Shown here in pieces: positions 11,704-29,402 of a stretch of DNA of 34,818 nucleotides. Each line of letters opens with the position of its first letter. The stretch's first letter is position 1. The notes under the pieces were generated by a model that was not told where the DNA came from, made no database searches, and was given only the letters and a program-made list of their open reading frames with translations. Position numbers and translations under genes: made by a program. Origin of the DNA: Acidobacteriota bacterium. GTDB taxonomy: Bacteria > Acidobacteriota > Vicinamibacteria > Vicinamibacterales > UBA8438. The stretch covers positions 16,572 to 51,389 of the forward strand of contig JAPOYG010000266.1 of the NCBI GenBank assembly GCA_026706755.1. The letters run 5' to 3'.

Positions 11704-11873
11704 TGCCCCGTAACGCCCAGCGGTGCCGCTGACTAACCCCACCCCAGGCGGCGAACGACGTGTCGTCACGGCGTGCTCCGCGGGTCGCGCACGCGGAAGG
11801 GACGCGCAGGATGCGGCGGCACGCAGGCCCAATTCGGACGGACTGGCCGCGCGCGTGGCGCGCGACGAAGCCG

Positions 11874-13367
11874 ATGCCCGAAGCAGCCATGAGCCAGCAT
11901 ACGCAGCGAGGGGACGTTCCGGGGCCCGCCGGCCTCGTTGTGGAGGCGGCGCAACGCCCGCCCACGACCAGGGGCGGCGGCGTGCACGCGGCCGCCTGGC
12001 GCTGCGGCGACCGGATCGAGTGCCGCGTGGGGCTGGATGCGACCTGGGTCGCAGACCGCGAGCGACCCGGGGCGCAGGGCGCCGGCGGCAACGCGACGGC
12101 CCCAGGATCCGTGTGCGTCATCCTCGACGACACGTCGAAGGCCGAGCCGTTCTGGGCGCCCGATCCGCGGGCGCACCTCTGCGCGATGACCGTGGTGGTG
12201 TACGAGATCGCCAGGTGGGTACACGCGGAGGGCCGTGACGTCCTGGTCTCGTTTCTCGGCCTCGATCGCGTGTTCCCCGTGGATCGAGGGACCACCCTTG
12301 CCGCGATCGAGCAGGCGCTCCAGGATCTGCGGCGTGATGAGGATCCGTCATGCCGCGGCTGGTACGCGGCGCCGGTCCTCGACGCGCTGGCGCGACAGCG
12401 CGCTGGCCCGGTCCGAGCCGTACTGATTGGGGACAGCCCGGTACCGGACCTCGCGGCGTGCCGGCGGGACGGCGGCGTCGAGCTCGAACGGTTGTGGCTG
12501 TCGCCCGCGGCAAGAACTGACGGCATCTGCGAGTCGGCTCCGGATCGACCAGTCCTGTTCCCGCATCCCGAGCCAGAAGCGGGCGGCGGCCCGGACGCGC
12601 TGCGCCGGCAACTCGACACGGCGGTCATCGAGACGCGCTTCGCCCGGACGACCGGCCTGGATGAGGTCGCGATCCGTCTGAGCGGTGCGCCGCCGGTGCA
12701 ATGGCGGCCGACCACCGCCGCACTGTCGCGCGACGGCGACGGGTTCGTGCTGGACTGGCGTCTGGGCGGCGCCTCCGCTGGCGTCCTGCACGCGCGGATC
12801 CTTGCAGGCGTCGCGCCGGCCGCGCTGACGTGCGACCTCCGACGGCGCAGCGAGAGCGGCCGGTTGACGGTGCGCGTCCCCTGTGAGCCCGCGCCACCGC
12901 CGCCCGCCGGGGAGGGTGACGGCCCGCTGTCGGAGCCGCCCGCGGCCGGCGTTCTGCCGGAGTCGGAGCTCGACCTCTGGGCACTGCTCTGCGACCCGGC
13001 ACGACCATGCGACGAGTGCGGGCGGCGGGGCGGGCATCTGCTCCATCGGGGCGACGCGAAGCTCTACGGCCGCCCCATCCTGCGCAGTCACGCGAGGTTG
13101 CAAGCCGGGTGGGTCTGTCAGCGCGCGGGCGCACCCGACTGGCGCCGCTTCGACACCGGCGTCGAGCTCGAGGGTGGCGCCGTCGTGCTGCTCGACCGGC
13201 GGCCCCATTGGGTGGCCGCGACCGGCGCCGGCCCGGGGGCCGCCGGAACGCGCGTCGAGCCTCTCCCGCGCAACGACGACGAGGAGTTCGTGCTGGCGGC
13301 GGGCGGGACGACGTGGCACGTGGCCGAGCTGGTGGGCAAGCCCGGGGCCGGCGAGGGACGGCCGTGA
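11874..13367 (+). CDS. Hypothetical protein with possible vWA-like N-terminal region and Cys-rich C-terminal motif
   Basis: VCVILDDTSKAEPF..MTVVVYEIARWVHAEGRDVLVSFLG resembles a vWA-like strand/loop/helix arrangement; CDPARPCDECGRRGGHLLH Cys motif; alternative start 11889; GTGA overlap with the next gene. Confidence 0.5.
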   Translation: MPEAAMSQHTQRGDVPGPAGLVVEAAQRPPTTRGGGVHAAAWRCGDRIECRVGLDATWVADRERPGAQGAGGNATAPGSVCVILDDTSKAEPFWAPDPRAHLCAMTVVVYEIARWVHAEGRDVLVSFLGLDRVFPVDRGTTLAAIEQALQDLRRDEDPSCRGWYAAPVLDALARQRAGPVRAVLIGDSPVPDLAACRRDGGVELERLWLSPAARTDGICESAPDRPVLFPHPEPEAGGGPDALRRQLDTAVIETRFARTTGLDEVAIRLSGAPPVQWRPTTAALSRDGDGFVLDWRLGGASAGVLHARILAGVAPAALTCDLRRRSESGRLTVRVPCEPAPPPPAGEGDGPLSEPPAAGVLPESELDLWALLCDPARPCDECGRRGGHLLHRGDAKLYGRPILRSHARLQAGWVCQRAGAPDWRRFDTGVELEGGAVVLLDRRPHWVAATGAGPGAAGTRVEPLPRNDDEEFVLAAGGTTWHVAELVGKPGAGEGRP

Positions 13368-15508
13368 GGGTCGAGATCGGACGCGAGTCGCGAACGGGGT
13401 GCCCGGTCGTCCGCGTCGTTGGCGGGGCCGCGTACGTGGGCTTCTTTCCAGTGCTCAAGCTGCAGGTCGACGCCTGGATCCAACGCGCGGAGCCGCCACC
13501 GCTCCTGACGCTCGACCGCCGCAGTCGCGACGACCTCCAGGAGCGTGTCGAGCGGCCGCTCGGCGGTGAGCAATACCAGGAGGCGCCCGACCGGCACGCG
13601 CTGGATCGCCCGCCGCCGGACGGCCCGCGGATGGAGACGCCGGTCGGCTGGATCGCGACCCACCTCACCGTCTGGTCCGAAAGCGACGACCTGACCCGCG
13701 CCGACCGGTTTCCGACGCCGGAGAGCGAGTGGGGCCGGATGCAGGCGTGGCTGGGCGCAAGCCCGCCGTCGAGCGAGGAGTGGGCGCGCGCCCAGGCCGA
13801 GCTCGCGCGCGTAACCACCAGATCGTGGCTGGAAGCGGTGCTGGCGGCCGAGGCCGCTGGCGAAGGGCCGCGGTGGGCCGAACCGGTGCGGACCTTGGCC
13901 GCACGCCTGCGCGAGCAGACCCCCGCAACGGATCGGGGCCTCCCCTTCATGCGCCTCGGGGTCTACGAGCTGACGCACGACGCGGCAGACCACCACTTGG
14001 ACGACCGCGTCGAGCGCCGCCCGCGGGTCGCCGGGCAGTGCGCGGTCTGGCCGGCGCTGCCGCGCTCCAGCGCCGATCGCGATCGCTCGCTCACGATGCT
14101 GCAGTCCGCACTGCCGATGGTGGGCGCCCGACTCTGGTGGTCGAGCGCCGTCGCCGGCAGCTCCGAGGCGGCTGGCGATCCGCGCGTCAGGCGGCTGGCG
14201 GTCACGGACATCGCCGAGGTTCCCGGGCTCGCCGACCCGTGGCCCGCGCCGCGCGGCCGCTCGCGTTCCCGGTGGACGTTGCTCGGGCTCGGGGGGGACG
14301 CCTCTCATTCCGACGGCACGCGAAAGACCCGCAGCGGGCGGGCCGACACCCGGACCCGTCGCCGGTCGACGGCGTTCCGGACGCGCTACGTCACCATGAC
14401 GCGCCGGTGTCCTCTCTGCTACGGGACGGTGCCCAAGCCGGCATTCCACCGGTCGAGGGTCTGGTGCGACCCGGCGGCGGAGCTGCTCGAGCGACACACG
14501 ACGGCCGCCTCCACCATCGGCGAGGGCGGCCGGCGGGACGTCATCCCGAAGCCGTACCACGCACTGGCGCAGGCCACCCCGGGCCGGGTGCGGTCGGTGA
14601 CGGTGGCTGGCGAATCGGCCACCGGCAAGGGGGTGTTTCTCCTGGTGTTGTCGGCGATGCTCCACCGTGCGCACTCGGGGTGGGCGTTCGGCGGCGTGGT
14701 CGAGCCGTGCATCCTGCAAGACGAGCGGGTCGCCGACCTGAACGTCAACCTGCAGCGGCAGCTCGACCGACTGCTCGTCTCGGGCGACCTGCCCGTGCGA
14801 ACGCCGGAGCACGCCCGAGCGCTCCGCAGCCCCTGGCTCTTCTCGCGCCCCCGACGAGGGTGGCACGCACCGCACCGAGCCTCGGAGCGTCGGATCGCCG
14901 TCATCTTCAACGACATCGCCGGCGAGATCCTCGGCGATGCGCACCGGAGCGCCACGAACGAGCACTTCACACCGCACCTGGCCTGCACCACGGACGTCGT
15001 CTACCTGGTGCCGGCTCATGAGCTCGCAGGCGCCGCGCGCCGGCTGGGACGGTTCCGCAACACACTGGAGGCGGTTGAGCACGTCGAGGACCCTCGCACG
15101 CGGCGGGCCGTCGATCTCACGCAGGTCAATCTGATCCTGGCCATCAATCAGATCGACCGCCTGCGGCACAACCCCGAGTCGCCGCTCGGGGAGCTGCTGC
15201 GGATCTCGCTCCGCGAGCCGTACGGACTTGCGGAGAGGGACGAGCGGTCGGCTGCGGCGTACCTCTCCGCGATGCAGCAGGTGCATCACGACCTTGTCGA
15301 CTGGCTGTCGGAGCACGAGCCCGGCCTCCTGGTGGAGGCTCGGCACTTCGGGTCGCTGCGCGTGTGCGGGATGAGCGCCACCGGATCCGCCGTCATTGCC
15401 CGGGGGGCTGAAGACACGGTCGAGCGCAGTCTCGCGTTCGCGCCGGCGCCGGTGCGGGTCACCGACCCGCTGCTGTGGATTCTGCGTGAGTGCCGGTATC
15501 TGTCGTGA
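13364..15508 (+). CDS. GTPase-like protein (TRAFAC / double-GTPase-type) with zinc ribbon and N-terminal accessory region
   Basis: GTG start overlapping upstream TGA; RRCPLCYGTVP zinc ribbon; VTVAGESATGKGVFLLVL P-loop-like; IAVIFNDIAGEI DxAG-like; LILAINQIDRL NKxD-like. Confidence 0.65.
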   Translation: MRVEIGRESRTGCPVVRVVGGAAYVGFFPVLKLQVDAWIQRAEPPPLLTLDRRSRDDLQERVERPLGGEQYQEAPDRHALDRPPPDGPRMETPVGWIATHLTVWSESDDLTRADRFPTPESEWGRMQAWLGASPPSSEEWARAQAELARVTTRSWLEAVLAAEAAGEGPRWAEPVRTLAARLREQTPATDRGLPFMRLGVYELTHDAADHHLDDRVERRPRVAGQCAVWPALPRSSADRDRSLTMLQSALPMVGARLWWSSAVAGSSEAAGDPRVRRLAVTDIAEVPGLADPWPAPRGRSRSRWTLLGLGGDASHSDGTRKTRSGRADTRTRRRSTAFRTRYVTMTRRCPLCYGTVPKPAFHRSRVWCDPAAELLERHTTAASTIGEGGRRDVIPKPYHALAQATPGRVRSVTVAGESATGKGVFLLVLSAMLHRAHSGWAFGGVVEPCILQDERVADLNVNLQRQLDRLLVSGDLPVRTPEHARALRSPWLFSRPRRGWHAPHRASERRIAVIFNDIAGEILGDAHRSATNEHFTPHLACTTDVVYLVPAHELAGAARRLGRFRNTLEAVEHVEDPRTRRAVDLTQVNLILAINQIDRLRHNPESPLGELLRISLREPYGLAERDERSAAAYLSAMQQVHHDLVDWLSEHEPGLLVEARHFGSLRVCGMSATGSAVIARGAEDTVERSLAFAPAPVRVTDPLLWILRECRYLS

Positions 15509-15551
15509 CCCTGGGCCCGCCGGATCGCACGCGCGGCGCCGGGGAGGAGCG

Positions 15552-17789
15552 ATGACCCTGCATCAGCACGTGTACGGTCGAGTGGCGGCCGGCTATCGGC
15601 CCGCCGGCCCCGGATACCAGCTCGCTGCGCTCTCACCGGCCCTCGACGAAGAGAAGGGAACGATCGAGCGGCTCAACCGGTTGTCGTTCTTCACCCCTCA
15701 GCGCGGCGGCGACACGCCAGTGCGTTACAGCTTCATCCGCCCGGCGCCGGGCCGCGTCGCGTTCGGTGCGAGCCGGTTGGCGCGCGACGAGTCCGGCGGT
15801 GTGGGCGCCTTCGCCCATCACTTCGTCGGCACGACGTCGGCGCTGGTCGAGAGCGGCCTGACGCCGGTCGCGCTGCTGGCCGCGCTCAGGCCACGCTTCC
15901 TCGACAGCGAGGCGGCGCTGGGCGCCGAGCGGCGGCTTCCGCCGCTCGATTCGGCGACGCTCGCCGACCCGCCGCCCGACCGTGCGGACACTCGTGCATG
16001 CGCCGGTCCAGGGACGACCGATGCAATCGCTGGCGTCCGCACTGAGCCCGACGCCGTAGCGGGCACGGACCTGCGCGTCTGGACGCTGCTGGATGCCTGC
16101 CTGGCGACGCCATACGGGGGGCGCCCGCGTGGGCCCGTGCCGCTGGTCGTCCTGTCCGACCTGGCGGTCTGGCCGTTTCTGGAGGCCGTCTTCCGGCAGC
16201 TCTCCCCGCAACGCGCCGCCGAGATGACGTTCTCCACCCTCTTCGTAGAGGCGAGCAGCCACGCCGTCAGCTTCCGGTTCGTGCTCGCACCCGAGGCGCG
16301 CGACGAGCCGGCGGGCGCCTCGCCGTTCCGGGTCCTGCGCCACGATCAGGACGACGATTCGCTCGAACCAGCGAATCACCGGCACGGGCCATACGTCGAC
16401 TTCTGCCGGCGCCGGCCGCACCTGGTGTGGGAAACACGCAGGTTCATCGACCTGAGCCACCGCCAGCCACACGACCTCACCGGGGGCGGGCCGTTGCTCG
16501 ATACCGTCCTCCACACCTCCGAGCCGGCCGCCAGCGCCTTCCGGGCCGCGTGCGAGAGCGAGGCTACGCCGCGGGCGCTGCTGTTGCGTCTCCTGCTGGC
16601 GTCCCCTGCACGGGCCCGGCGTTACTGGTGCCACGGCGAGGCCGTGGCGTACGACGGCGCGCTCGCGGACGTGGTGTGGGAAGAAGCGACGACCCGCCTG
16701 CCGGCGCTGCTGCGCATCGCGGCCGCCGGCGGGCATCTGGCGCTGCGGGATGACGCCCTGGCGGATCTTGCCGCGCGAATACGCACGACCCCGCAGGCGT
16801 CCGACCTGCTCCACGCGCTCGATCCGCCGACCGGCGGGGTGTCGAGCGCGTCCCACTCCCTCCCTCGCCCCGCTGCGGTCGATGCCCGTGCCACCCACCA
16901 GCTCCGCCCGAACCTCAGATCCTTCATCGCGCAGGCCGCCTGCGAAACGACGGGCGAGATCCTCGACCTGGTTGCTGCGATCCTGCGGCCCCCACCGACG
17001 GGGACCCCCGAGTCGAACACGGTCGGGGCGCGAGACGGTCAGGCCGGCGCGACGACAGGCGACGGCGACGCCGCGACCCGCCATGCCGTCGTCGGCAGCT
17101 TGCGTCACGAGCTCGCGAAGCGCCTGCTGAGACGCATGGCCTCGACGGGCCGGGCGCCGACACCCGAAGAGCGGGCCCGGCTCAGCGCAGTCGCGGCCGA
17201 GCCCCGCGCGGCCGCCGAGGCCCGCGGGTCGGACTTCATGGCCGCGGCTCTCGCGCTGGCCCGCTGGAGCGCCCAACCGCGGGCCGGCCGCGCCCGCCGT
17301 CCTCGGCGGGGCCACGGCGGCAACCAGCCGCCCGCCGGCGACGACGCGGCCCTCCGCCTCGGTGCGTACGGTCTCGAACGACGGCAGTACTTGGCGCTGC
17401 TCCGGGCGGCCGCTCCTCACGTGACACGCTGGACGCATGCGCCGGAGAGCCCGGCGACGCAACTGCGCCATCCGGCGCACGCGCGGGACTTCGAGTGCTG
17501 GGCGTTGGCGCGGCGTTCGGCGCTCCCCTTTGCGGATCAGGTGACGCTGCTCGTCGACCTCATCGCGCTCCGGCGACCGGACGAGCCGTCCGCGGAGGTC
17601 GCGGCGGCGATTGCGGCGGATGCGCGCCGCGTTCGCCTCGCGACGGGTGTGCTGGAACGGTTCCGGCCGGACGACCCGGCGGCTGCGGACCCGGAGCGGC
17701 GCGTCCTGCTGAGGCTCTTGCAGGCGATCGCCGACCGACGCCTGCGGCGCCGGCTGCGCCGCTGGTTCGCGGGCACGCCGTGGTCATGA
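15552..17789 (+). CDS. GTPase-associated protein (GAP1-N-like)
   Basis: N-term HQHVYGRVAAGYRPAGPGYQLAALSPALDEEKGTIERLNRLSFFTP resembles the GAP1-N family start; strong SD ggggagg; adjacent to the GTPase-like gene. Confidence 0.6.
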   Translation: MTLHQHVYGRVAAGYRPAGPGYQLAALSPALDEEKGTIERLNRLSFFTPQRGGDTPVRYSFIRPAPGRVAFGASRLARDESGGVGAFAHHFVGTTSALVESGLTPVALLAALRPRFLDSEAALGAERRLPPLDSATLADPPPDRADTRACAGPGTTDAIAGVRTEPDAVAGTDLRVWTLLDACLATPYGGRPRGPVPLVVLSDLAVWPFLEAVFRQLSPQRAAEMTFSTLFVEASSHAVSFRFVLAPEARDEPAGASPFRVLRHDQDDDSLEPANHRHGPYVDFCRRRPHLVWETRRFIDLSHRQPHDLTGGGPLLDTVLHTSEPAASAFRAACESEATPRALLLRLLLASPARARRYWCHGEAVAYDGALADVVWEEATTRLPALLRIAAAGGHLALRDDALADLAARIRTTPQASDLLHALDPPTGGVSSASHSLPRPAAVDARATHQLRPNLRSFIAQAACETTGEILDLVAAILRPPPTGTPESNTVGARDGQAGATTGDGDAATRHAVVGSLRHELAKRLLRRMASTGRAPTPEERARLSAVAAEPRAAAEARGSDFMAAALALARWSAQPRAGRARRPRRGHGGNQPPAGDDAALRLGAYGLERRQYLALLRAAAPHVTRWTHAPESPATQLRHPAHARDFECWALARRSALPFADQVTLLVDLIALRRPDEPSAEVAAAIAADARRVRLATGVLERFRPDDPAAADPERRVLLRLLQAIADRRLRRRLRRWFAGTPWS

Positions 17790-18000: not shown

Positions 18001-18969
18001 ATGAGCGGTCGCAAGGTATCGAGGATCATGCTCGACCACGCTGTGCGGAATGCGGTTCGGCTTCGGACCGAGGCAGAGGACGCCCGGACGCGAGCCCGAA
18101 GCATCCTGACCACGCTGGGCTCGAAGGCCGGCGAGGCCGGGGCGCTGAAGACCGGCCTCGCCGACCTGCGGCGCCGCTGGGAGGAAGTCGAGCAGCAGTG
18201 GCCGGGAACGAAACGCCTTTGGACAGTGTCCGACGCAGAGCAGCGCGCGGCGCAGTGCCGCGCGCTGGGACGCGAGCTCAAGACCATCGCGCGCGATGCC
18301 AGCGCACTCAGCGGTGCAGCCGATGTCCGTGGCGCGCTCGCGGCGCTGAATGCGGAGGTCGAGGCCCGCGATGCCGAGCTGCGGCCGTGGCTCGGAGATC
18401 GCTGGGAAGACTATGTCGGACGCGTGCGGGCGCGGCTGGCGACGCTCGACCGGGCGATCCGCAGCGGCGGAGACGCCGCGCCCGATCGAGCGACGGGCGA
18501 ACGCCTGTCCGCCGAGCTCGACGAGCTGTTGAAGCAGGTGGCGGCGGACCGCCGGGAGGCGGCGGAGCGGGACCACGTGGCCTCCGCCATAGAGCAGGTC
18601 TGCCGCGAGAAGGGCTACGCGGCGACGCGGCATCCGCTGGAAGTGCCCGGGGACGACCTGGTTCTCGATGTCGACACGTACTCGCACGGCCGCATCCAGG
18701 TCCGGCTGGAGCTCGGGTCGTTCACCCCCGGCGCCGTCGAGCGGGGCAGCCCGGAGTCGGGGGGCATCACGTGGCGGTCCGAGTCGGCGGGACTGAGCCA
18801 GGAGGATTGCGCGAAGACGTTTCCGGACATCGCCGAGAAACTGCGCCGTCTCGGGGTGGGCGCCGATTTCTCGTACGAGGAGAATGGCCGGCCAATAGGG
18901 CAGACGCACACCGCGGCGACGCTCTCGCAGGGCACCCCCGCCGCCGTCACGGTGGAGCGCGGCACATGA
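18001..18969 (+). CDS. Coiled-coil protein with C-terminal alpha/beta domain
   Basis: Long Ala/Glu/Arg heptad-like region then DDLVLDVDTYSHGRIQVRLELGSF; SD gggaggg; ATGA overlap with the next gene. Confidence 0.6.
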   Translation: MSGRKVSRIMLDHAVRNAVRLRTEAEDARTRARSILTTLGSKAGEAGALKTGLADLRRRWEEVEQQWPGTKRLWTVSDAEQRAAQCRALGRELKTIARDASALSGAADVRGALAALNAEVEARDAELRPWLGDRWEDYVGRVRARLATLDRAIRSGGDAAPDRATGERLSAELDELLKQVAADRREAAERDHVASAIEQVCREKGYAATRHPLEVPGDDLVLDVDTYSHGRIQVRLELGSFTPGAVERGSPESGGITWRSESAGLSQEDCAKTFPDIAEKLRRLGVGADFSYEENGRPIGQTHTAATLSQGTPAAVTVERGT

Positions 18970-19610
18970 TTCCGGCGAACCTCTATCCGGACGTGTACCC
19001 GCACCTGAACGTGGCCGACGTCGACATCGTGACCGGGGCGGCGGGGCCGGGGCGGCGCCTCGTCGTCTGGCTCCAGGGGTGTCTCAAGCGCTGCCCGGGT
19101 TGCGCCAATGGGCCGTTTCTGGCCGAACGACGCGGCGAGCCGGTCGCGTGGCCAACCCTGCTGGCGCGGCTCGACGGGCTGGACGGCGTGACCCTCAGCG
19201 GCGGCGAGCCCGTGCTGCAGGCCGCCGCCCTCGCGCCCTTTGCCGCCGCGGTGCGCCTGCGCGGGCAGACGGTAGTCTGCTACTCCGGCTACACGCTGGC
19301 CGAGTTGCGCGCGGAGCCAGGCGCCATCGCGCGCCTGCTCGCGCAGGTCGACCTCCTGATCGACGGCGAGTATCAGGGTGACTTGCCTCGTGCCGGCGCG
19401 TATCGGCCGTCGGCCAACCAGCACGTGCACCTGCTCACCGACCGCATCCCGGCCGGGGCGTGCACCGGCAACCCGGACACCGTGATCCGCATCCGCCGGG
19501 GTCGTGTCAGCCAGACGGGCACGCTGCCGGCGGCGGTCCGCGCGGCAGTGTTCGACCGCCTGGCGGCGGCCGGGATTCGCGTTCGACGCGGGGAGCGGAC
19601 GGATGCCTGA
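18966..19610 (+). CDS. Radical SAM activating-enzyme-like protein (NrdG/PflA-type 4Fe-4S)
   Basis: LVVWLQGCLKRCPGCANGPF (CxxxCxxC), VTLSGGEPVLQAAAL, VVCYSGYTLAEL, IDGEYQGDL. Confidence 0.85.
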   Translation: MIPANLYPDVYPHLNVADVDIVTGAAGPGRRLVVWLQGCLKRCPGCANGPFLAERRGEPVAWPTLLARLDGLDGVTLSGGEPVLQAAALAPFAAAVRLRGQTVVCYSGYTLAELRAEPGAIARLLAQVDLLIDGEYQGDLPRAGAYRPSANQHVHLLTDRIPAGACTGNPDTVIRIRRGRVSQTGTLPAAVRAAVFDRLAAAGIRVRRGERTDA

Positions 19611-21453
19611 ACCGCACGACAGCGACCCCTCGACGCCCAGCGCACCCTTCGCCTGGCAAAGCAACCTGCTGCACGCCCTGCGGACCCGCCGCGTCGTAGT
19701 ACTCCACGGCAACGTGCGCGATCGGTACATCCACGTGGACCGCGACCGTCACGCGGAGATCGGTCTCGACGAACTCATCGCGCGGCTCTGCCATGCGCGG
19801 TACGGTCCCGTCCGCCGCTACGACGCCTACGCGAAGGTGTCGGACCTGTCCGTGGCGGCTGGCGGCGTCGTCGACGACGACCCGGTTCCCGACTTCGGAG
19901 CGCCCGGGTTCACGAGCACGGTCGACACGACCCTGGCCCGCCTGGTCGAGGCGATGGAGCGGCCGGTGACGGGGCCTCTCGTCTGGCTCTTCGGTTGCGC
20001 GCACAACGTCTTCCCGTATCGCACGTCGTATCCCGAGAACGAGGCGACGCGCCTCGTGGTGCTCCAGCGCATCATCGAGCGCATGGCGACGGACAAGCGG
20101 CTGCTGTTCGTCTACCTCTCCGACACGCAGCTCCCGGTGGAGCTCTCGCGCCACGCGCACCAGGTCGCGTTCGTCCAACTGGATGTCCCGGACTACGACG
20201 AGCGCGTGGCGTTCTGGCGCCATCGCGGCATTGGCGGTGCGGCGGCGGACGAGCTCGCCAGGCTGACCGACCGCATGGCGCTGACGTCGATGCAGTCGCT
20301 GGCCGACACGGCCCGGACCGCGGCGGGAGACCGGGACCTGCCCGCGCTTACGCCCTTCGACTGGGAGCAGTTGATCCGCCGGCACGCCTTCGGCGAGACG
20401 CCTGACTACTACCGGCAGATCACGTCAGAGCAACTGCAGTCAGCGGACGCCTTCTTCACCGAGCAGGAGGGCATCAAGGGTCAGGATCGCGCCGTCCACA
20501 AGGCAATCCACATGCTGTGGGTGGCGCGCGGCGGCGTGAACCGTTTGCTGCGGCCGGCGCACTCCACCGCGCCGCGCGGCTTTCTCTTCCTCTGTGGTCC
20601 GACCGGCACCGGCAAGACCATGCTGGCGAAAAAGGTCGCGAAGTTCGTCTTCCGCTCCGAGGAGGCGTTCCTCCGGATCGACATGAGCGAGTACGCGGAG
20701 GCGCACAACGTGTCCCGCCTGTTCGGCTCGCCCCCCGGCTACGTCGGCTCGGAGGAAGGAGGCGTGCTGACCAACGCGCTCGCCGCCCGCGGGTTTCAGG
20801 TGGTGCTGTTCGACGAGATCGAGAAGGCCCATCCGCGGGTCTTCGACCTGTTTCTCCAGATCCTGGAGGACGGCCGGCTGACGGACGGGCGCGGCCGCAC
20901 CGTGTCGTTCGCGCACGCCCTCATCTTCTTCACGTCGAACATCGGCGCGCGGCGCGCCGAGCAGGCCCGGCTGGCCGACGCCAGAGCGGCCGGCGAGGCC
21001 GCGGTGGCGGCGCACTTCGTCTCGTGCGTGCGCGAGTACGTCGGAACCGAGATCAGCCGTCCCGAGCTGCTGAACCGGATCGGGCACGACATCGTCCCGT
21101 TCAACTTTCTCGACCGCGACGCGGCCGCGGATGCCCTGCGCTTCCACCTCGCGGCGGTCGAGACCCGGTTCAATCAGGAGTACCGCGACCGATCGTGGCG
21201 CCTGGAGATCGACTACCAGGCCGTCGTGCCGCGCTTGCTCGCCGAGTACGGCGACACGCTCCAGGAGTTCGGTGGGCGCGAGGCCGAGAATGCGCTGAAG
21301 GATGCGGTGCTGCCCGAGCTGGCGCAGCGCGTGATCCGCCTCGAGGACGAGGCGCGCGGGCGGGCGGCCGTGCTGCAGGTGACGTGCGGGCGCCGGGGTG
21401 GCGAGGATCGGGTGGTCGTGCTCCCGGGCGAGCGGAGCGGCCTCCGGCCATGA
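19603..21453 (+). CDS. AAA+ ATPase, ClpB/ClpA-type module with divergent N-terminal AAA-like region
   Basis: LCGPTGTGKTMLAKKVAKFVF, DMSEYAEAHNVSRLFGSPPGYVG, VVLFDEIEKAHPRVFDLFLQILEDGRLTDGRGRTVSF, FTSNIGA; N-term VVVLHGNVRDRYI..LVWLFGCAHNVFP lacks Walker A. Confidence 0.88.
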   Translation: MPEPHDSDPSTPSAPFAWQSNLLHALRTRRVVVLHGNVRDRYIHVDRDRHAEIGLDELIARLCHARYGPVRRYDAYAKVSDLSVAAGGVVDDDPVPDFGAPGFTSTVDTTLARLVEAMERPVTGPLVWLFGCAHNVFPYRTSYPENEATRLVVLQRIIERMATDKRLLFVYLSDTQLPVELSRHAHQVAFVQLDVPDYDERVAFWRHRGIGGAAADELARLTDRMALTSMQSLADTARTAAGDRDLPALTPFDWEQLIRRHAFGETPDYYRQITSEQLQSADAFFTEQEGIKGQDRAVHKAIHMLWVARGGVNRLLRPAHSTAPRGFLFLCGPTGTGKTMLAKKVAKFVFRSEEAFLRIDMSEYAEAHNVSRLFGSPPGYVGSEEGGVLTNALAARGFQVVLFDEIEKAHPRVFDLFLQILEDGRLTDGRGRTVSFAHALIFFTSNIGARRAEQARLADARAAGEAAVAAHFVSCVREYVGTEISRPELLNRIGHDIVPFNFLDRDAAADALRFHLAAVETRFNQEYRDRSWRLEIDYQAVVPRLLAEYGDTLQEFGGREAENALKDAVLPELAQRVIRLEDEARGRAAVLQVTCGRRGGEDRVVVLPGERSGLRP

Positions 21454-22472
21454 CGCATCGGATGCGGCGCGTGGCGCGCGGCGACCGGTCGTGGCCCATG
21501 CCGCTTGCAGTCATCTCGCAATGGGTTGCCAGGCGCACCTGGCCCAGGAGCAAGCCCCACCGGGAGTCCGGGTACGCCGACCCCGGCGACGACCCCACTA
21601 CGGCCGACTGGACGCGCCCGTGGCTGCCGCCGCAGTGCGACGGACCGCCGCCCGGGAGGGCCATCAACCAGTGGCCGCGTTCCAGGGACGCGCTGCTGAG
21701 GCGCGTGGCCGAGGCGGCCGGAGTGCCGGAAGCGCCGGCCGTCGTATCTCAGGCGGCCCGCGTCGAGGGTCCGGCCGCGGCGTGGTTCGCCTACTGCCAT
21801 CTCTTCGATCATCCTGACGGCCGGCGAGCGACGCGTGGCTACATCGTCGAGGCGGCGCACATCTGCCTGGAGGTCGAGCGCATCCGGGCGACGGCGCCGA
21901 CGGTAACCGCGAAGCCGGTGTACGACGCGCTCCTCGCCCACGACTTGCTGCTGGCCCGGCGGCTGCTCGCCGGGCTGCGGGCGGTCGTCACGTTCCGCGC
22001 CGAACTCCAGCGCGACGACGAGGGCGATGGAGCCCCGTTGCTGAGCCGCGCCCGCACGTTCCGCGTCGCTGCGGCCGAGTTCCTGAGCGGCGAGTGGGCG
22101 GAACACCTAGTGGAGATCCCCGCGCTGCGTGAAGCCCATCTCGCGTGGCGGCGCGCCGACCGGCGCTACCGCACCTCGAAGCAGCGCATCGAGGCCCGGC
22201 TGCGGGAGTGCGGGACGCTCCACGCGGCGGCGGGAGCTCGCAGTGCGCCTGCGCATCGGGACGCGCGTCGTGCGTTCGACACGCTGGGCGCGCGGTGGTG
22301 GCGGTTGGTCGACGCACTGGAGCACGGGCACGTGGATCCCGGGAGCGCGAGGCGCGGCTTTCCCGAGGTGCATCGGGTCGCCAACGCGGTCGACGCCCTG
22401 CTCGACGTCACCCGCAACGCGACGCAGTCGAGATCGGGCCAGCCGCGTGAACCCGAGGAGGGGCAGTCGTGA
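21450..22472 (+). CDS. Hypothetical helical protein
   Basis: ATGA overlap with the AAA+ gene and GTGA overlap with the next; helical, Arg/Ala-rich; no recognised motif. Confidence 0.55.
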   Translation: MTHRMRRVARGDRSWPMPLAVISQWVARRTWPRSKPHRESGYADPGDDPTTADWTRPWLPPQCDGPPPGRAINQWPRSRDALLRRVAEAAGVPEAPAVVSQAARVEGPAAAWFAYCHLFDHPDGRRATRGYIVEAAHICLEVERIRATAPTVTAKPVYDALLAHDLLLARRLLAGLRAVVTFRAELQRDDEGDGAPLLSRARTFRVAAAEFLSGEWAEHLVEIPALREAHLAWRRADRRYRTSKQRIEARLRECGTLHAAAGARSAPAHRDARRAFDTLGARWWRLVDALEHGHVDPGSARRGFPEVHRVANAVDALLDVTRNATQSRSGQPREPEEGQS

Positions 22473-23239
22473 TCCCGAAGGTGTACTCGCTCGTCATGTG
22501 TTGCGGGCTTGTCGCGGCGCTGTTCCTGGCCGTGCTGCCCGTCCTCGGACTTGACGGACAACCCCGGGCCCATCTTGCGGTGAGCATCAGCCACATGCTC
22601 GCGTTGACGGTCATCGCGTGGGTGCAGGTTGCCAACCGCCGGAGGGCGCCGGCCAACCTCGACGACGTCGGTAGGCGCCTGGCGAATACCGGCTACGTCC
22701 ACACGTTGATCGGCGTCATCGCCTCGCTAGCGCTGGTCGGACGCGTCGATCTTCTGACGGACGCCGGCCTGTCGGCCCTGGTGACGCCCATGGGTGCGGC
22801 GCTGATCACCTCCATCATCGGCTGGTGGATGGGAGGCGAGATCCAGCGCCCCTGCTGGTCGACGGCCCCGCTCGCGGCGGTCCCCGAGGTCGATCGGCAG
22901 GTGGCGCTGTTCTGCGACCGCTTGGCGACCTACAACTCGTCAATCAGCCGCGCCACTGCCGCTGCCGACAAGGTCGCCGACGCGGCCGACGCGGCCGTCC
23001 TGCACCTCACGCGGACCGCGACGCGGGCGGAGGAAGCGTCGACACGCTTGCAGACCGCGGCCGCGTCGTTCGCGGCCAACCTCAACGCCGCAGGCGAGAC
23101 GCTACAGGGGCTCGCGTCCGAACTGCAGGACGGTCAACGACAGGCGAAGCGCATCAGCGATGCTCTCGGCGCCCTGCGGGACGCGGTGGCCTCGATCGAC
23201 GCGCTGATCGCGGAGATGAACGAGAGGCGCGCGGCATGA
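22469..23239 (+). CDS. MotA/TolQ/ExbB (ZorA)-like membrane protein with coiled-coil tail
   Basis: Several TM segments; LANTGYVHTLIGVIASLALVG...LVTPMGAALITSIIGWWMGG resembles MotA/ExbB core helices; long C-terminal coiled coil. Confidence 0.62.
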   Translation: MIPKVYSLVMCCGLVAALFLAVLPVLGLDGQPRAHLAVSISHMLALTVIAWVQVANRRRAPANLDDVGRRLANTGYVHTLIGVIASLALVGRVDLLTDAGLSALVTPMGAALITSIIGWWMGGEIQRPCWSTAPLAAVPEVDRQVALFCDRLATYNSSISRATAAADKVADAADAAVLHLTRTATRAEEASTRLQTAAASFAANLNAAGETLQGLASELQDGQRQAKRISDALGALRDAVASIDALIAEMNERRAA

Positions 23240-23997
23240 CCGCCCACGGGCGCGATTCGGGCGTGCCGACCGACCCGTCGGAACGCAGGTTCGACCCCGC
23301 CGGGCACGGGCGGCGAGCGGCACAGTGGACCGGAGAGGTCTTCATCATCCTGATGACCGTCTTCTTCCTCGTCGCGGTTGCGGCCTTGATGCGTGAGGCG
23401 CGAGCACGCCCACCCGCGGCGGACATCGAGCTGGTGCGCGACCCGGAGGAGCAGCCGCCGCTCATCATCCTCGACGAAGCGAGCGGGTACAGCTTCGCCA
23501 CCGGCACCCACGACCTCTCCCCGGCCTTCCGCCGCGCACTGGACGAGAAGATCGTGCCCGCCATCGCGCACGAGGCCGACGCCTGTCGCTGCGACGTCCT
23601 GGAAGTGTTCGGTCACACCGACGGGCAGCCGTATCGCGGCGTGCCGGGCGCCCGGCGCGGATCGCTCGACACGCTCCCGGACCGCTTCGCGGCCGGCGAC
23701 CTCCGCGGTCTCACGGCCGGCTCCAATGTCGAGCTCGGCTATCTGCGCGCGGCCGCGGTGGCGGACTACCTGGCCGGCCTTGGAGCCGACGGCGGCCTGG
23801 CGCGCATCCGCTTCCTGCACTTCCACAGCACGGGCTCGATGGTCCTGCCCTCCGGGAAGCGCGCCTCGGGCCGCGACCAGCTTCCGGACGCCGCACGCCG
23901 CCGCATCGAGCTCCGCCTGTCGCGATCCACGGACCAGCACGTCGTCGAACTGCGGACCAACACGCCCCGAGTAACGCGCGCACGTCCCGACGACTAA
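23236..23997 (+). CDS. MotB/OmpA (ZorB)-like membrane-anchored protein
   Basis: Single N-terminal TM GEVFIILMTVFFLVAVAAL; EVFGHTDGQP ... SNVELGYLRAAAVADYLAGLG OmpA-C motif; ATGA overlap with the MotA-like gene. Confidence 0.75.
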   Translation: MTAHGRDSGVPTDPSERRFDPAGHGRRAAQWTGEVFIILMTVFFLVAVAALMREARARPPAADIELVRDPEEQPPLIILDEASGYSFATGTHDLSPAFRRALDEKIVPAIAHEADACRCDVLEVFGHTDGQPYRGVPGARRGSLDTLPDRFAAGDLRGLTAGSNVELGYLRAAAVADYLAGLGADGGLARIRFLHFHSTGSMVLPSGKRASGRDQLPDAARRRIELRLSRSTDQHVVELRTNTPRVTRARPDD

Positions 23998-24117
23998 TGC
24001 CGCGAAGACCGCGAACGCGACATCGGCAGTGCCGCGGATGCGGCGGGATGGGACCGGGCGCGGGCGTACCACAGGTAGCCGCCGCCTCCGCGTGAACGGC
24101 GAACCGGATCGATCGTC

Positions 24118-25800
24118 ATGCAACGAAACGACGTAAGCCGACTAATCGACCGTGCCCTGCGTGGCGCGCCCGACACGCCGATCGCGGAACGCTGCGAGTC
24201 ATTGCGCCGCGCGCGGAGCCTCGGCTCGGTCACCGCACGGCGGGTCGACGAACGGGTGATCGCGGAGCTGGACAGGCTGCGGTCGGGATTCACGGATCTG
24301 GCGGCCCTTCATGAACGGCTCCGAGCGAGCATCGATCGGACGGGCGAGCCACCGCTGCATCCCGCGATCGTCATCGGCCTCGACGAGACGCCGGCCGGCC
24401 CCCTCGCGCTGGTGCAGCACGGGCCGGCGCGGCTGGTCGTGACCCTCGACGCCGAGCTGGCGACGGAGATCGCGCCGGGTGACGCGGTCCTCCTCGGCCC
24501 GGACCGGACCACCGTCGCGCGAAGGTCGCCCTTCGCAGCGGCGCGCTGCGGCGAGACGGCCATCTTCGAGCGCGCGCTCCCCGACGGCCGCCTGGTGTTG
24601 CGGCGGCGCGACGAAGCGGTGCTCGTGGAGGCGGCCGCGTCCCTGGAGGAGGCATCGCTCGAGGCTGGCGACCTGGTGCGCTGGAGCGAGTCCGCCACGA
24701 TGGCGCTCGAGCGCGTGCCCCGGTCGACCGCCTCCCCGTTCTTCCTGGAGGACGCCCCCGCGGAGACGTTCGCCGATATCGGCGGGATGGACCACGTGAT
24801 CGAAGAGCTGCGCGCGTCGATCGGCATGCACCGGTTCGAGGCCGCCGCCGTGCAGAAGTGGCGCCTGCGGCGCAAGGGGTCGGTGCTGCTGGTCGGTCCC
24901 CCGGGCAACGGCAAGACCCTGCTGGCACGGGCGCTGGCGAACTGGCTCGGGGCGATCTCCCCCGCGCGGCGCTCACGCTTCATGAATGTCAGGCCGGGGG
25001 CGCTCAACTCGCTGTGGTACGGCCAGTCCGAAGCCAACTACCGCGAGCTGTTTCGCGTGGCGCGCGACACCGGCGCCGAGCACCGGGACGTGCCGGTCGT
25101 CATCTTCTTCGACGAGGTGGATACCGTAGGAGCGCGGCGCGGCGCGGCGCTCGCACATACGGACGACCGCGTGCAGAACGCGTTCCTCGCGGAGCTCGAC
25201 GGGCTGGCGGAGCGTGGCAACGTCCTCGTCGTGGCGGCGACGAACCGACACGACATGCTGGACCCGGCGTTGGTCCGGCCGGGTCGTCTCGGCGACCACA
25301 TCGTGACGGTGCCGAGACCCGACCAGGCCGCGGCCCGTCAGATCCTCGAGAAGCACCTGCCGGTGGACATCCCCTACGCCCGAGGAGGAGGTTGCGCGAG
25401 GGACGAGTTGATCGACCTGGCCGTCTCCCGGTTCTTCCCTCCGGACGGCGACGGGTATCTGGCGACCGTCGTGCTTCGCGACGGTCGGACGCATGACGTG
25501 GCCCCTGGCGATCTGATCAGCGGCGCCGCGATCGCCAACGTCGTGCGCCGTGCTCTCGAGCGCGCATGCCGCCGGGAGATCGCCGGCGGCGCGGTCGGTC
25601 TCTCCGCGGCAGATCTCAGCGAGGCCATCGACGGGGAGTTGCGGCAGGCTGCGGGCGCGTTGACGCCGGGCAACTGCCGGAACTACCTGATGGACGTGCC
25701 GGGGGACGTCGCGGTCCTGCGTGTGGATCGGGCCGCTCCCAAGCGGAGCGCCAGCGAGGCGACGTCGATCGTGTTGACGCCCCCGAGGGTGATGATGTGA
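24118..25800 (+). CDS. Mpa/ARC-like (proteasome-associated-type) AAA+ ATPase with N-terminal coiled coil and OB-like region
   Basis: FADIGGMDHVIEELRASI, LLVGPPGNGKTLLARALAN, PVVIFFDEVDTVGARRG, VVAATNRHDMLDPALVRPGRLGDHI; N-term helical plus beta-rich segment; GTGA overlap with the PafA-like gene. Confidence 0.82.
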   Translation: MQRNDVSRLIDRALRGAPDTPIAERCESLRRARSLGSVTARRVDERVIAELDRLRSGFTDLAALHERLRASIDRTGEPPLHPAIVIGLDETPAGPLALVQHGPARLVVTLDAELATEIAPGDAVLLGPDRTTVARRSPFAAARCGETAIFERALPDGRLVLRRRDEAVLVEAAASLEEASLEAGDLVRWSESATMALERVPRSTASPFFLEDAPAETFADIGGMDHVIEELRASIGMHRFEAAAVQKWRLRRKGSVLLVGPPGNGKTLLARALANWLGAISPARRSRFMNVRPGALNSLWYGQSEANYRELFRVARDTGAEHRDVPVVIFFDEVDTVGARRGAALAHTDDRVQNAFLAELDGLAERGNVLVVAATNRHDMLDPALVRPGRLGDHIVTVPRPDQAAARQILEKHLPVDIPYARGGGCARDELIDLAVSRFFPPDGDGYLATVVLRDGRTHDVAPGDLISGAAIANVVRRALERACRREIAGGAVGLSAADLSEAIDGELRQAAGALTPGNCRNYLMDVPGDVAVLRVDRAAPKRSASEATSIVLTPPRVMM

Positions 25801-27635
25801 CGAAACGACGCAGGCGCCGCCGACCGAGGCCGGCGCGCGCGCGGAGCCTGGGCACCCGGGGCAGGCTGGCGAGTGGTCGAGGCGCTTCCGCGCCCATCCG
25901 CCACACGCCGAAGATCGTCGGAGCGGACGTCGAGCTCGCGAGCTTCCTGCCCGGCGTCGACCGACCCGGCGGTACAGGCGGAGAGGCGTCTCGCGCCCTG
26001 TTGCGAGAGTTCGTCGGCGTGCCGGCGGCCGGCGGGGCGTGGCCTGGATTCCTCGATGCGTGGTCGGTCGCCGGCAGGGCCTCATTGTCTGCCGGGGAAG
26101 AGGGCCGGCAGTTCCTGCCTTCGAACGGCGGCAGCGTCTACATCGACCTCGATCATCTGGAGATCTGTTGCCCGGAGGTTCGAAGCGCGTTCGATCACGT
26201 CGCGGCCTGGCACGCCATGCTTCGATTGACTCGGGGAGCGCTCCACGCCGCCAACGCCCGTCGCCCGGACGGGTCGCGGATCGAGGTCCTGGTCAACACC
26301 AGCGATGGGCTCGGACATTCCTACGGGGCGCACCTGAACTTCCTGGTGACGCGCCGCGCGTGGGACCATCTCTTCACCCGCCGCCTGCAGTACCTCCTCT
26401 CGCTCGGCGCGTTCCAGGTGTCCGCGATCGTCCTGACCGGCCAGGGCAAGGTCGGCAGCGAGAACGGCCGGCCGCCGGCGCCGTTCCAAATCTCGCAGCG
26501 CGCCGACTTCGTCGAGTCGCTGGTGGGGCCACAGACGACGTTCAACCGGCCGCTCGTGAACAGCCGCGACGAGCCGTTGTGCGGCGGACGGCCCGGAGAC
26601 CTGGCGTACGCAGCCGGGTCCGCACCTGGAGGGAGCGCGGACGAGCGGCTGGCACGCCTGCACGTCATCTTCTTCGACGCCACGATGTGCCAGGTAGCCT
26701 GCGTCCTCAAGGTCGGACTGATGCAGATGCTGCTGGCGATGATTGAGGCCGAACGCATGCCCGCGCGGGTCTTGCTGGAGGATCCGCTCGACGCCCTCGC
26801 GACCTGGAGCCGCGATCCGGACCTGCGCACGACGACCCGCCTGGCCACCGGCGGGCGTACCACGGCCGTCGAGCTGCAGCGGCGATTCCTCGAGCAGGTC
26901 GCGCGGTTCGTCGAGGGCGGCGGGTGTGACGGGCTCGTCCCCGACGCGAAGCGGCTGATCGCCCTTTGGGACGACACGTTGACGAAGCTGGAGACTCGCG
27001 ACTTCGACTCGCTCGCCGCCCGGCTCGACTGGGTGCTCAAACGGTCGATGATCGAGCGGGCCCGGGCGCGCCGGCCCCGTCTGCGCTGGGACGCACCCGA
27101 GCTCAAGCAGCTCGATCACCTGTACGCCGGGCTGGAGACGAAGACCGGCCTCTACTGGGCCTGGGAACGGCAGGGCGCGGTAGAGCAGGTTGTAACGGAT
27201 GACGCAATCGAAGCCTTCACCACGTCGCCGCCGGAGGACACGCGCGCATGGACACGGGCCATGCTGCTCCGACGACTCGCGGACGGTGATCGTGTCGAGG
27301 CGGTGGACTGGGACGTCATCCGCGCGCGGTGCCGGGGTGCACTCGGCCGCCGCCGGACTCTGGACATGCAGCATCCGATGAAGCACGGGCGGGCACAGAC
27401 GAAGCCAAGCTTCGATGCGACGAACAGCACGCGCGAGCTGCTCGACCGGCTTGGCGCACGGGACGAGGCGACGACCGGCCAGTGGTTTCTGCGGCCGGGG
27501 ATGCAGCGTGGAGCCGACATGCTCCTCGCCGATCGCCGCAAGGCGGATCCTGGAGACACGACGGAGGGGACCGATGGCGCAGCACGAGCGGACCAGGGAG
27601 CCGGTGAACCCGGCGGACGAGGCTCGTCCGGATGA
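25797..27635 (+). CDS. Divergent PafA/Dop (Pup ligase/deamidase) family protein, copy 1
   Basis: KIVGADVELASF, NGGSVYIDLDHLE, VNTSDGLGHSYGAHLNFLV, RPLVNSRDEPL, LHVIFFDATMCQVACVLKVG, LDWVLKRSMIER align in order with PafA motifs ([68 protein letters not shown]). Confidence 0.8.
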   Translation: MTKRRRRRRPRPARARSLGTRGRLASGRGASAPIRHTPKIVGADVELASFLPGVDRPGGTGGEASRALLREFVGVPAAGGAWPGFLDAWSVAGRASLSAGEEGRQFLPSNGGSVYIDLDHLEICCPEVRSAFDHVAAWHAMLRLTRGALHAANARRPDGSRIEVLVNTSDGLGHSYGAHLNFLVTRRAWDHLFTRRLQYLLSLGAFQVSAIVLTGQGKVGSENGRPPAPFQISQRADFVESLVGPQTTFNRPLVNSRDEPLCGGRPGDLAYAAGSAPGGSADERLARLHVIFFDATMCQVACVLKVGLMQMLLAMIEAERMPARVLLEDPLDALATWSRDPDLRTTTRLATGGRTTAVELQRRFLEQVARFVEGGGCDGLVPDAKRLIALWDDTLTKLETRDFDSLAARLDWVLKRSMIERARARRPRLRWDAPELKQLDHLYAGLETKTGLYWAWERQGAVEQVVTDDAIEAFTTSPPEDTRAWTRAMLLRRLADGDRVEAVDWDVIRARCRGALGRRRTLDMQHPMKHGRAQTKPSFDATNSTRELLDRLGARDEATTGQWFLRPGMQRGADMLLADRRKADPGDTTEGTDGAARADQGAGEPGGRGSSG

Positions 27636-27768
27636 CGCGACTCGGCGTCGACCACGGCGGCCGGAGACGGACCAGTTGATGGCGGAGGCCGACGCGCTCA
27701 TCGACCGCGTGCTCTCCGGAGACAGCGAGGCGTTCAACGCGGCGGTGCGCCAGAAGGGCGGTCAGTAG
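27574..27768 (+). CDS. pup: Pup-like protein modifier, 64 aa, C-terminus QKGGQ
   Basis: MAQHERTREPVNPADEARPDDATRRRPRRPETDQLMAEADALIDRVLSGDSEAFNAAVRQKGGQ; strong SD acggagggga; same length and C-terminal KGGQ as M. tuberculosis Pup; single Lys at position 61; lies between two PafA/Dop-like genes. Confidence 0.93.
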   Translation: MAQHERTREPVNPADEARPDDATRRRPRRPETDQLMAEADALIDRVLSGDSEAFNAAVRQKGGQ

Positions 27769-27773
27769 GAGCC

Positions 27774-29402
27774 GTGCCCGGCGCGCTGCACGGGCTCCTC
27801 CGCGTCATCGGGCGGACCCTCGGGCCGCAGCCGGCCTCCCGTCGACACCGGCCGCGAACCACAGTGGCGCGGAGGTCGGCGGTGCCGCGACTCCTGGGGG
27901 CCGAAACCGAGTATGCCGTGGCTGACCTCACCGGTGCTGTGGCGGGTGGCGGCGACCGCTTGGCCAAGGCACTCGTCAAGGCGGCGCTGGCGGAACGCCC
28001 CTCCATCAAACCGTTCCTCGCCAACGGCGGCAAGCTGTACGTCGATCAGGGCCTGCATCCGGAGTTCGCCACTCCGGAGTGCGCCGACCCGCGCGAAGTG
28101 CTGCGCTACATGCGCGCGGGCGATCGCATCCTGTCGTCGGCGGCGAAGCGCCTGCAGGTCGCGCGGCGGTACGGGCGCCCGATCGTGTTGCGGACCAACG
28201 TGGACTACGGCGGCGACGGCAACACATGGGGCTGTCACGAGTCGTATCTCCACCGCGGAGTGGACCCCGCAACGGCCGCGCGCCACCTGATCCCGCACCT
28301 CGTCTCGCGCGTCGTGTTCAGCGGCGCGGGCGGCTTCGATCCGCGGTCGAAAGGACTGCGCTTCACCCTGTCGCCGCGGTCCGTTTACATCGTCAAGGCG
28401 GTCTCGAGAGAGACGATGTCCGGGCGCGGCATCTTCAACACCAGGAACGAAGCGCTCAGCGATGCCCGGTACGGCCGGCTGCACGTAATCTGCGGTGAGA
28501 GCCTCTGTTCCGATCGGGCGACCTGGCTGAAGCTCGGGACGACGGCGCTCGTCGTCGCGCTCATCGAAGCGCGTGACGCTCCCGGAGCTGACGTGCAGCT
28601 CTCGGACCCCGTCGCGATGCTGCACACCATCGCTGCCGATCCAGAGTGCCAGGCGCTCCTCCAGCTCACCGACGGCCGTTACGCAACGGCCCTCGACATT
28701 CAGCGCGAGTACCTCTCGCGCTGCGAGCAGCGTCTCGGGGATCCGATCATGCCGGGCTGGGCCGAGCCGCTCTGCTCCGACTGGCGAGCCACGCTCGACA
28801 TGCTCGCGAACGACCCCGACCATGCGGCAACATCGCTGGACTGGGCCATCAAGCGACGCATCTATGCCCGCCGCGCCGAACGCCTCGGGTTTCCGTCGAC
28901 GACGTGGCGAGCCTGGACCACGGTGATCGACATGCTGCGACGGCGCGCCGGCACGACCCCGATCACAGCCCGCGCGATCCTGGGCCGATCGAGTCCGCTT
29001 CGTCCCGTGGTCCGGGATCTGACGCCGTACATGCGGGACGCCGGCCTCCACTGGTCTCAACTCGACGCGTTTCTGACGGTCCGCCAGGAACTGTTCGAGA
29101 TCGACACGCGGTTCGGCCAGCTCGGCGGGGACGGCATATTCGAACGACTCGACGCACGTGGGTTGCTCAGCCACCAGGTTGACGGCGTGGGGGACGTCGC
29201 AACGGCGGTCGACGAGCCGCCGGCGCACGGGCGCGCGAGAGTGCGGGCGCGCTTCGTTCGCGACCACGCCGGAGACACGGGCTTCGATGTGGATTGGCAC
29301 GAGATCGTCGATAGGCGCGACCCGGCCCGCTGGATTGATCTGAGCGACCCATTCGCGTCGCGCGCGGTGTGGCGCGAGGCCGCACGGGGACCCACGGCTT
29401 GA
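27774..29402 (+). CDS. PafA/Dop family protein, copy 2 (motifs intact)
   Basis: LLGAETEYAV, NGGKLYVDQGLHPEFATPEC, TNVDYGGDGNTWGCHESYL, GIFNTRNEAL, LHVICGESLCSDRATWLKLGTTALV, ALDIQREY, SLDWAIKRRIY. Confidence 0.93.
   Translation: MPGALHGLLRVIGRTLGPQPASRRHRPRTTVARRSAVPRLLGAETEYAVADLTGAVAGGGDRLAKALVKAALAERPSIKPFLANGGKLYVDQGLHPEFATPECADPREVLRYMRAGDRILSSAAKRLQVARRYGRPIVLRTNVDYGGDGNTWGCHESYLHRGVDPATAARHLIPHLVSRVVFSGAGGFDPRSKGLRFTLSPRSVYIVKAVSRETMSGRGIFNTRNEALSDARYGRLHVICGESLCSDRATWLKLGTTALVVALIEARDAPGADVQLSDPVAMLHTIAADPECQALLQLTDGRYATALDIQREYLSRCEQRLGDPIMPGWAEPLCSDWRATLDMLANDPDHAATSLDWAIKRRIYARRAERLGFPSTTWRAWTTVIDMLRRRAGTTPITARAILGRSSPLRPVVRDLTPYMRDAGLHWSQLDAFLTVRQELFEIDTRFGQLGGDGIFERLDARGLLSHQVDGVGDVATAVDEPPAHGRARVRARFVRDHAGDTGFDVDWHEIVDRRDPARWIDLSDPFASRAVWREAARGPTA

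What the first reader, a model, noticed from the sequence alone, without database searches (positions are those of the whole stretch)
22469..23997. MotA/ExbB-like plus MotB/OmpA-like pair next to the Pup cassette
Gene 1 has TM helices and a long coiled-coil tail; gene 2 has one TM and an OmpA-C peptidoglycan-binding motif. This is the architecture of MotAB, TolQR and Zorya ZorAB. The second protein's TM lacks the usual Asp but begins GEVFIILM, with a Glu that might replace it. An ion-driven envelope sensor or motor coupled to protein tagging would be novel.
Basis: partly seen in the sequence, partly recalled or inferred. Interest (0 to 1): 0.68.

Follow-up and report, generated by a model that had tools for sequence, protein, structure and literature searches.

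The report
Glutamate-type ZorAB-like membrane motor pair
Two overlapping genes encode what looks like a small ion-driven membrane motor related to the Zorya and flagellar motors, with a conserved glutamate where known relatives use an aspartate; it sits inside a large chaperone, GTPase and protein-tagging gene island that may be a defence system.

Summary
ZA (22469-23239) and ZB (23236-23997) overlap by 4 nt. ZA has four predicted TM helices and a ~118-residue helical tail; ZB has one TM and an OmpA-like domain. Pfam and NCBIfam miss ZA. Profiles built from newly found relatives (rhizobial plasmids, IMG/VR contigs, an acidobacterial genus) retrieve type II ZorA, MotA and type I ZorA from the PDB at weak E-values. 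An AlphaFold model of a relative matches type II ZorA (Foldseek prob 0.98, TM 0.71). ZA aligns to MotA over TM3-TM4 (22/46 identical), keeping both Ser/Thr ring positions. The ZB glutamate E34 is invariant in the family and takes the place of the ion-carrying Asp. So ZA/ZB is very probably a ZorAB/MotAB-type motor from an unnamed Glu-type family, here in reduced form. It is not Zorya: no ZorC, ZorD or ZorE was seen. It is translationally coupled to a coiled-coil/radical-SAM/ClpB/unknown module in a GAP1-N2 GTPase-chaperone island. The Pup cassette starts 120 nt downstream, but that linkage was not seen elsewhere: other Pup cassettes examined lack ZA/ZB, and the other Glu-type pairs examined lack Pup. 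Coupling to tagging is possible, not shown.

The parts
22469..23239 (+). ZA: A subunit, MotA/ZorA-like, four TM helices plus long cytoplasmic helical tail
22691..22831 (+). ZA TM3-TM4 (residues 75-121), the stator core; invariant T79 (22703-22705) and T114/S115 (22808-22813) at the Ser/Thr ring positions
   Evidence: alignment A7; MotA alignment 22/46 identical
22880..23233 (+). ZA cytoplasmic helical tail (residues 138-255), shorter than in the relatives
   Evidence: AF2 helix 138-255; PADLOC ZorA hits confined to this part
23236..23997 (+). ZB: B subunit, MotB/ZorB-like, one TM plus OmpA-like peptidoglycan-binding domain
23335..23337 (+). codon of Glu34, predicted ion-carrying residue at the start of the ZB TM helix (23335-23391)
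   Evidence: invariant in alignments A1 and A4 and in all TM motifs listed
23455..23919 (+). OmpA-like domain of ZB with GHTD and NxxLGxxRAxxV motifs
21450..22472 (+). X339: unknown soluble protein, overlaps the ClpB-like gene and ZA (translational coupling)
   Evidence: no family hit
19603..21453 (+). ClpB-like AAA+ (AAA_2) ATPase
18966..19610 (+). NrdG-like radical SAM activase
18001..18969 (+). coiled-coil-like protein, first gene of the coupled block
15396..17789 (+). GAP1-N2 GTPase-associated protein (true start may be further in)
   Evidence: PF20013 2e-8; 1.4e-9 in the genome search
13370..15508 (+). P-loop protein with GTPase-like motifs GESATGKG, DIAGE, NQID upstream of GAP1 (putative DO-GTPase)
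   Evidence: sequence motifs; weak AAA_16
24118..25800 (+). Mpa/ARC-like proteasomal ATPase, first gene of the Pup cassette; no GQYL-type C-terminus seen
25797..27635 (+). Dop-like enzyme of the Pup ligase family
27574..27768 (+). Pup, C-terminus GGQ
   Evidence: PF05639 0.002
27774..29402 (+). PafA-like Pup ligase

Best explanation
ZA and ZB form a ZorAB/MotAB-type inner-membrane motor, presumably ZA5:ZB2 by homology. Two ZB helices would sit in the ZA ring with Glu34 facing the ZA Ser/Thr ring (T79, T114/S115) and carrying H+ or another ion. The OmpA-like domain would engage peptidoglycan, and the bundle of ~118-residue ZA tails would pass motion or a conformational signal into the cytoplasm. 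The likely receivers are the co-translated partners (coiled-coil protein, radical SAM enzyme, ClpB-like ATPase, X339) within a GAP1-N2/GTPase-chaperone island. By analogy with Zorya the trigger would be disturbance of the envelope. Shown here: gene structure, homology, conserved Glu and Ser/Thr positions, coupled gene order. Inferred: assembly, ion flow, rotation, trigger, partners, defence role.
For: ZB relatives: tblastn E 1e-8; a profile without ZB scores it at 89 bits. The relatives examined have an A-type gene directly upstream, as here. hhalign of ZA against the relatives' A profile: 23.4, reached by 0/150 segment-preserving shuffles; against the TolQ/ExbB-type profile from this and related genomes 21.1, 5/150; both together 0/150. 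A genuine ZorA scores 22.9 against that profile, so weak scores are what this superfamily gives. Membrane-domain profile A7 against 177,635 PDB sequences: 4 of 7 hits are type II ZorA (best, E 0.068), two MotAs and type I ZorA, in register. ZA TM3-4 alone: two of three PDB hits are MotA (E 4); 22/46 identical to MotA. Model of relative L106-A: TM domain pLDDT about 80, Foldseek to type II ZorA 8vvi prob 0.98, TMt 0.71 over 102 columns, the highest probability among the hits shown. Glu invariant. Literature: ZorB Asp packs on a ZorA Ser/Thr ring, and ion flow, PG binding and tail are needed (PMC11890865); MotB Asp-to-Glu keeps reduced motility (PMC6663468); GldL uses a TM Glu (PMC8986121).
Against: No single sequence E-value for ZA or its family against a known stator A subunit is significant (best 0.068 for the family, 4 for ZA alone). 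Foldseek E-value for L106-A is 0.94, probably because of its long tail; the ZA model itself is poor and finds nothing. The MotA reference was chosen after a database search, so its shuffle test overstates significance. ZA lacks the large TM2-TM3 cytoplasmic domain of MotA. No orthologue of ZA was found in related genomes, so it could be decayed or specialised.
Confidence: 0.8

Rival explanations
1. ZA/ZB is a motor or envelope sensor whose output is the adjacent Pup system: envelope damage signals to the Mpa/Dop/PafA machinery so that targets are tagged and unfolded.
For: Adjacent, same strand, 120-nt gap; both lie in one island; conflict systems coupling Ubl and Pup conjugation are described (PMC7159879).
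Against: In the other genomes examined the Mpa-Dop-Pup-PafA cassette occurs without ZA/ZB and Glu-type pairs occur without Pup. ZA/ZB are coupled to the upstream module. Some comparison contigs end close to the Pup genes.
Confidence: 0.2
2. ZA/ZB is a passive peptidoglycan tether or membrane scaffold that anchors the GTPase-chaperone island at the membrane, without ion flow.
For: A second TM-OmpA protein (4934-5788) in the same island has no A partner beside it, so PG tethering is a theme here; ZA is small and diverged.
Against: An invariant TM Glu and retained Ser/Thr ring positions in ZA would be unnecessary for a tether.
Confidence: 0.12
3. ZA is not a stator subunit at all but an unrelated 4-TM coiled-coil protein beside a PG-binding protein, with similarity due to TM composition.
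For: Pfam, NCBIfam and single-sequence HMMER are negative.
Against: Shuffle controls, retrieval of MotA/ZorA from the PDB by the family profile, gene-order conservation of A-B pairs and the Foldseek match of a relative.
Confidence: 0.07

Closest known systems
Zorya type II ZorAB (PDB 8vvi, Sulfuricurvum kujiense)
   Same: A subunit with small TM domain and long cytoplasmic helical tail; B subunit with one TM and OmpA-like PG-binding domain; Foldseek prob 0.98 for a relative of ZA
   Different: Glu instead of Asp in the B helix; no ZorC, ZorD or ZorE gene recognised; ZA tail only ~118 residues; no PADLOC hit to the membrane part
Flagellar stator MotAB (PDB 8ucs, 6ysf)
   Same: TM3-TM4 sequence (22/46 identical) and OmpA-like B subunit
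   Different: ZA lacks the torque-generating TM2-TM3 domain; Glu not Asp; no flagellar gene recognised in the window
ExbBD / TolQR
   Same: TM3-TM4 core and an acidic residue at the start of the B helix (INVxPLVDVMLVLL against GLTMAESMLLL)
   Different: Acid is Asp; B subunit has no OmpA domain; no long tail
Unnamed Glu-type four-gene set on rhizobial plasmids, IMG/VR contigs and an acidobacterial genus
   Same: Same B family (89 bits), invariant Glu, A gene directly upstream
   Different: Here the first two genes (4TM coiled-coil protein; TM plus vWA-like domain) are missing, ZB lacks the long stretch between TM and OmpA domain, and the context is a GTPase-chaperone-Pup island
GAP1-N2 GTPase-centric conflict systems (Kaur 2020, PMC7159879)
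   Same: GAP1-N2 protein, P-loop GTPase-like gene, Hsp70, DnaJ/TPR and protein kinase in one neighbourhood
   Different: ZorAB-like pair, ClpB/radical SAM module and Pup cassette; the passages read name no ZorAB-like pair for GAP1-N2 systems

Membership tests
Zorya defence system | ZorA/ZorB pair of stator type with PG-binding ZorB | tested here: met
   homology; architecture
Zorya defence system | Accessory components ZorC/ZorD (type I) or ZorE (type II) | tested here: not met
   PADLOC scan of ten proteins from 18001-29402 finds no ZorC, ZorD or ZorE; genes further upstream were scanned with Pfam only
Zorya defence system | Conserved TM aspartate in ZorB (D24/D21, PMC11890865) | tested here: not met
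   Glu34 instead, invariant in the family
MotA/ExbB/TolQ/ZorA stator superfamily | TM3-TM4 core with Ser/Thr ring | tested here: met
   T79 and T114/S115 aligned with family and MotA; Pfam PF01618 itself does not hit
MotA/ExbB/TolQ/ZorA stator superfamily | 5:2 assembly and ion flow | not testable with these tools
   no multimer prediction or experiment available
MotB/ZorB-type B subunit | single TM with acidic residue plus OmpA-like domain | tested here: met
Flagellar MotAB | large TM2-TM3 torque-generating domain | tested here: not met
   the TM2-TM3 loop is about 20 residues
GAP1-N2 conflict system | GAP1-N2 plus DO-GTPase genes | tested here: inconclusive
   GAP1-N2 met (PF20013 2e-8); the GTPase-like gene has P-loop, DIAGE and NQID motifs but no family hit
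Pupylation cassette | Pup, PafA/Dop homologues and Mpa-like ATPase | tested here: met
   no 20S proteasome found in the genome: the single PF00227 hit lies beside an HslU-like ORF and looks like HslV

The most novel reading that the evidence does not exclude
An ion-driven, peptidoglycan-anchored motor of a Glu-type ZorAB-like family acts as the envelope sensor that switches a GTPase-chaperone and Pup-tagging defence machine, linking proton-motive force to protein tagging.
Probability: 0.15. Interest if true: 0.88.

Novelty: new variant of a known kind. Interest (0 to 1): 0.6.

Why it matters
It points to an unnamed branch of the 5:2 motor superfamily in which Glu takes the place of the ion-carrying Asp of the B subunit. 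No Pfam, NCBIfam or PADLOC model recognises the membrane part of its A subunit, so standard annotation misses it. The branch occurs in conserved operons on plasmids and virus-labelled contigs, which makes a defence or envelope-stress role directly testable. In the window the pair is embedded in a GTPase-chaperone-Pup island, a combination not described in the papers read here.

Tried and rejected
ZA against 100 relatives gave three weak hits (E 0.005-0.0075) that on inspection look like a TonB-type receptor, a stretch full of stops and a ZIP-like transporter: rejected. The one genome-contig scan, with the Mpa-like protein, returned only generic AAA ATPases. PADLOC ZorA hits on ZA cover only the coiled coil and were not counted as evidence. 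Whole ZA and the full-length A profile against the PDB found only coiled coils; trimming to the membrane domain was needed. ZA against plasmids: nothing. The AF2 model of ZA is too weak to search with. GAP1 against plasmids: nothing. The Zorya Nature 2025 paper (PMC11946911) was not held.

Full report
What is there. The window is part of a 51-kb contig of a 5.8-Mb, GC-rich bacterial genome. Two genes lie at the stated place: ZA 22469-23239 and ZB 23236-23997, overlapping by ATGA. ZA has four predicted TM segments and a long helical tail; ZB has one TM segment and an OmpA-like domain.

Why direct searches fail and what works. ZA has no MotA/ExbB hit in Pfam or NCBIfam and only coiled-coil hits in PADLOC. 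ZB, however, finds relatives by tblastn on Rhizobium, Sinorhizobium, Microvirga and Tistrella plasmids. These lie in a conserved set: g1 (TM segments, coiled coil), g2 (TM plus a domain that looks vWA-like by eye), g3 (A-like), g4 (B-like), often with a thermonuclease gene nearby. The same set is on IMG/VR contigs. In one genus of the same phylum the TM motif was hit in 12 genomes; the operon was read in full in one and partly in a second, and its B protein has a different periplasmic part. A profile of five B proteins without ZB scores ZB at 89 bits.

Is ZA a stator A subunit? hhalign of ZA against the A-like relatives aligns TM3-TM4 in register, score 23.4, reached by 0 of 150 shuffles that keep TM and loop composition. 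Against TolQ/ExbB-type proteins of this and related genomes the score is 21.1, reached by 5 of 150; no shuffle reaches both. The relatives' profile against the same TolQ/ExbB set scores 24.6, reached by 2 of 200 column shuffles. A genuine ZorA (L105) scores 22.9 against that set, so the superfamily simply gives weak scores; published work also reports that B subunits such as ExbD and TolR fall below detection (PMC12505986). The family's membrane-domain profile (A7) against 177,635 PDB sequences returns seven hits below E 10, of which four are type II ZorA (best, 0.068), two MotAs and type I ZorA. ZA TM3-TM4 alone returns MotA twice among three hits, E about 4. The ZA-MotA alignment has 22 identities in 46 columns and 0 of 5000 shuffles reach its score; the reference was chosen after the search, so this number overstates. 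The AlphaFold model of relative L106-A has a TM domain at pLDDT about 80, and Foldseek matches it to type II ZorA with probability 0.98 and TM-score 0.71, though the E-value is 0.94. The model of ZA itself is poor.

Ion-path residues. The ZB Glu34 is invariant in all relatives (GLTMAESMLLL and variants) and corresponds to the Asp of ExbD/TolR-type proteins of related genomes (PLVDVMLVLL). In ZA, T79 is invariant and T114/S115 align with Ser/Thr of the relatives and of MotA. In Zorya the ZorB Asp packs on a ZorA Ser/Thr ring and is essential (PMC11890865). Asp-to-Glu in MotB reduces but keeps motility (PMC6663468). GldL uses a TM Glu (PMC8986121).

Context. The genes coiled-coil, radical SAM, ClpB-like, X339, ZA and ZB each overlap the next by a few nucleotides. 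Upstream in the same orientation are GAP1-N2, a P-loop GTPase-like gene, a PPC-domain protein, a Ser/Thr kinase with TPRs, a TM OmpA-like protein, a DnaJ/TPR-like protein, Hsp70 and an AAA_2-AAA-M41 fusion that begins before the window. Hsp70, DnaJ/TPR and kinase companions match themes of GAP1-N2 conflict systems (PMC7159879). Downstream, after 120 nt, comes Mpa-Dop-Pup-PafA. I read neighbourhoods of Pup-ligase genes in twelve other genomes of the phylum; six have the same Mpa-Dop type of cassette. None of these stretches, about 180 kb together, contains ZA or ZB relatives, although several contigs are short. In several of them the cassette instead adjoins ubiquitin-like conjugation genes (E1-, E2-, Ubl- or JAB-like by eye), a coupling already noted in other phyla (PMC7159879). 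GAP1-N2 was found in only one other genome of 396 searched in the phylum.

Verdict. A Glu-type ZorAB/MotAB-like motor, reduced in size, in an unusual island. The link to protein tagging rests on adjacency alone. It is a new variant of a known kind.

Noticed in passing
L056, L057, L058, L059, L061, L076/L106, L077/L108, L107; L078, L080: An apparently unnamed four-gene set (TM coiled-coil protein, TM plus vWA-like domain, ZorA-like, Glu-type ZorB-like) recurs on alphaproteobacterial plasmids and IMG/VR contigs, often near a thermonuclease gene, and in a genus of the window's phylum with a non-OmpA periplasmic part.
   Followed up: partly
L014 2128-8206, L016, L017, L044: Other Mpa-Dop-Pup-PafA cassettes of the phylum sit beside ThiF/E1-like, E2-like, ubiquitin-like and/or JAB-like genes (assigned by eye), a Ubl plus Pup combination.
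   Followed up: partly
L111 152-4411 (contig C577 12951-17213, ends at window 642): A 1420-aa fusion of AAA_2 ATPase, AAA ATPase and M41 (FtsH-type) peptidase at the start of the island.
   Followed up: partly
window 4934-5788: A second TM plus OmpA-like protein with an N-terminal zinc-ribbon-like CxxC region and no A-type partner beside it.
   Followed up: no
window 11760-13367: Gene upstream of the GTPase-like gene with no family hit; looks vWA-like by eye (VCVILDDTSKA).
   Followed up: no
window 24118-25800 and genome contig C442 (L113): The Mpa-like ATPase lacks a GQYL-type C-terminus and no 20S proteasome was found; the only proteasome-family hit looks like HslV.
   Followed up: partly
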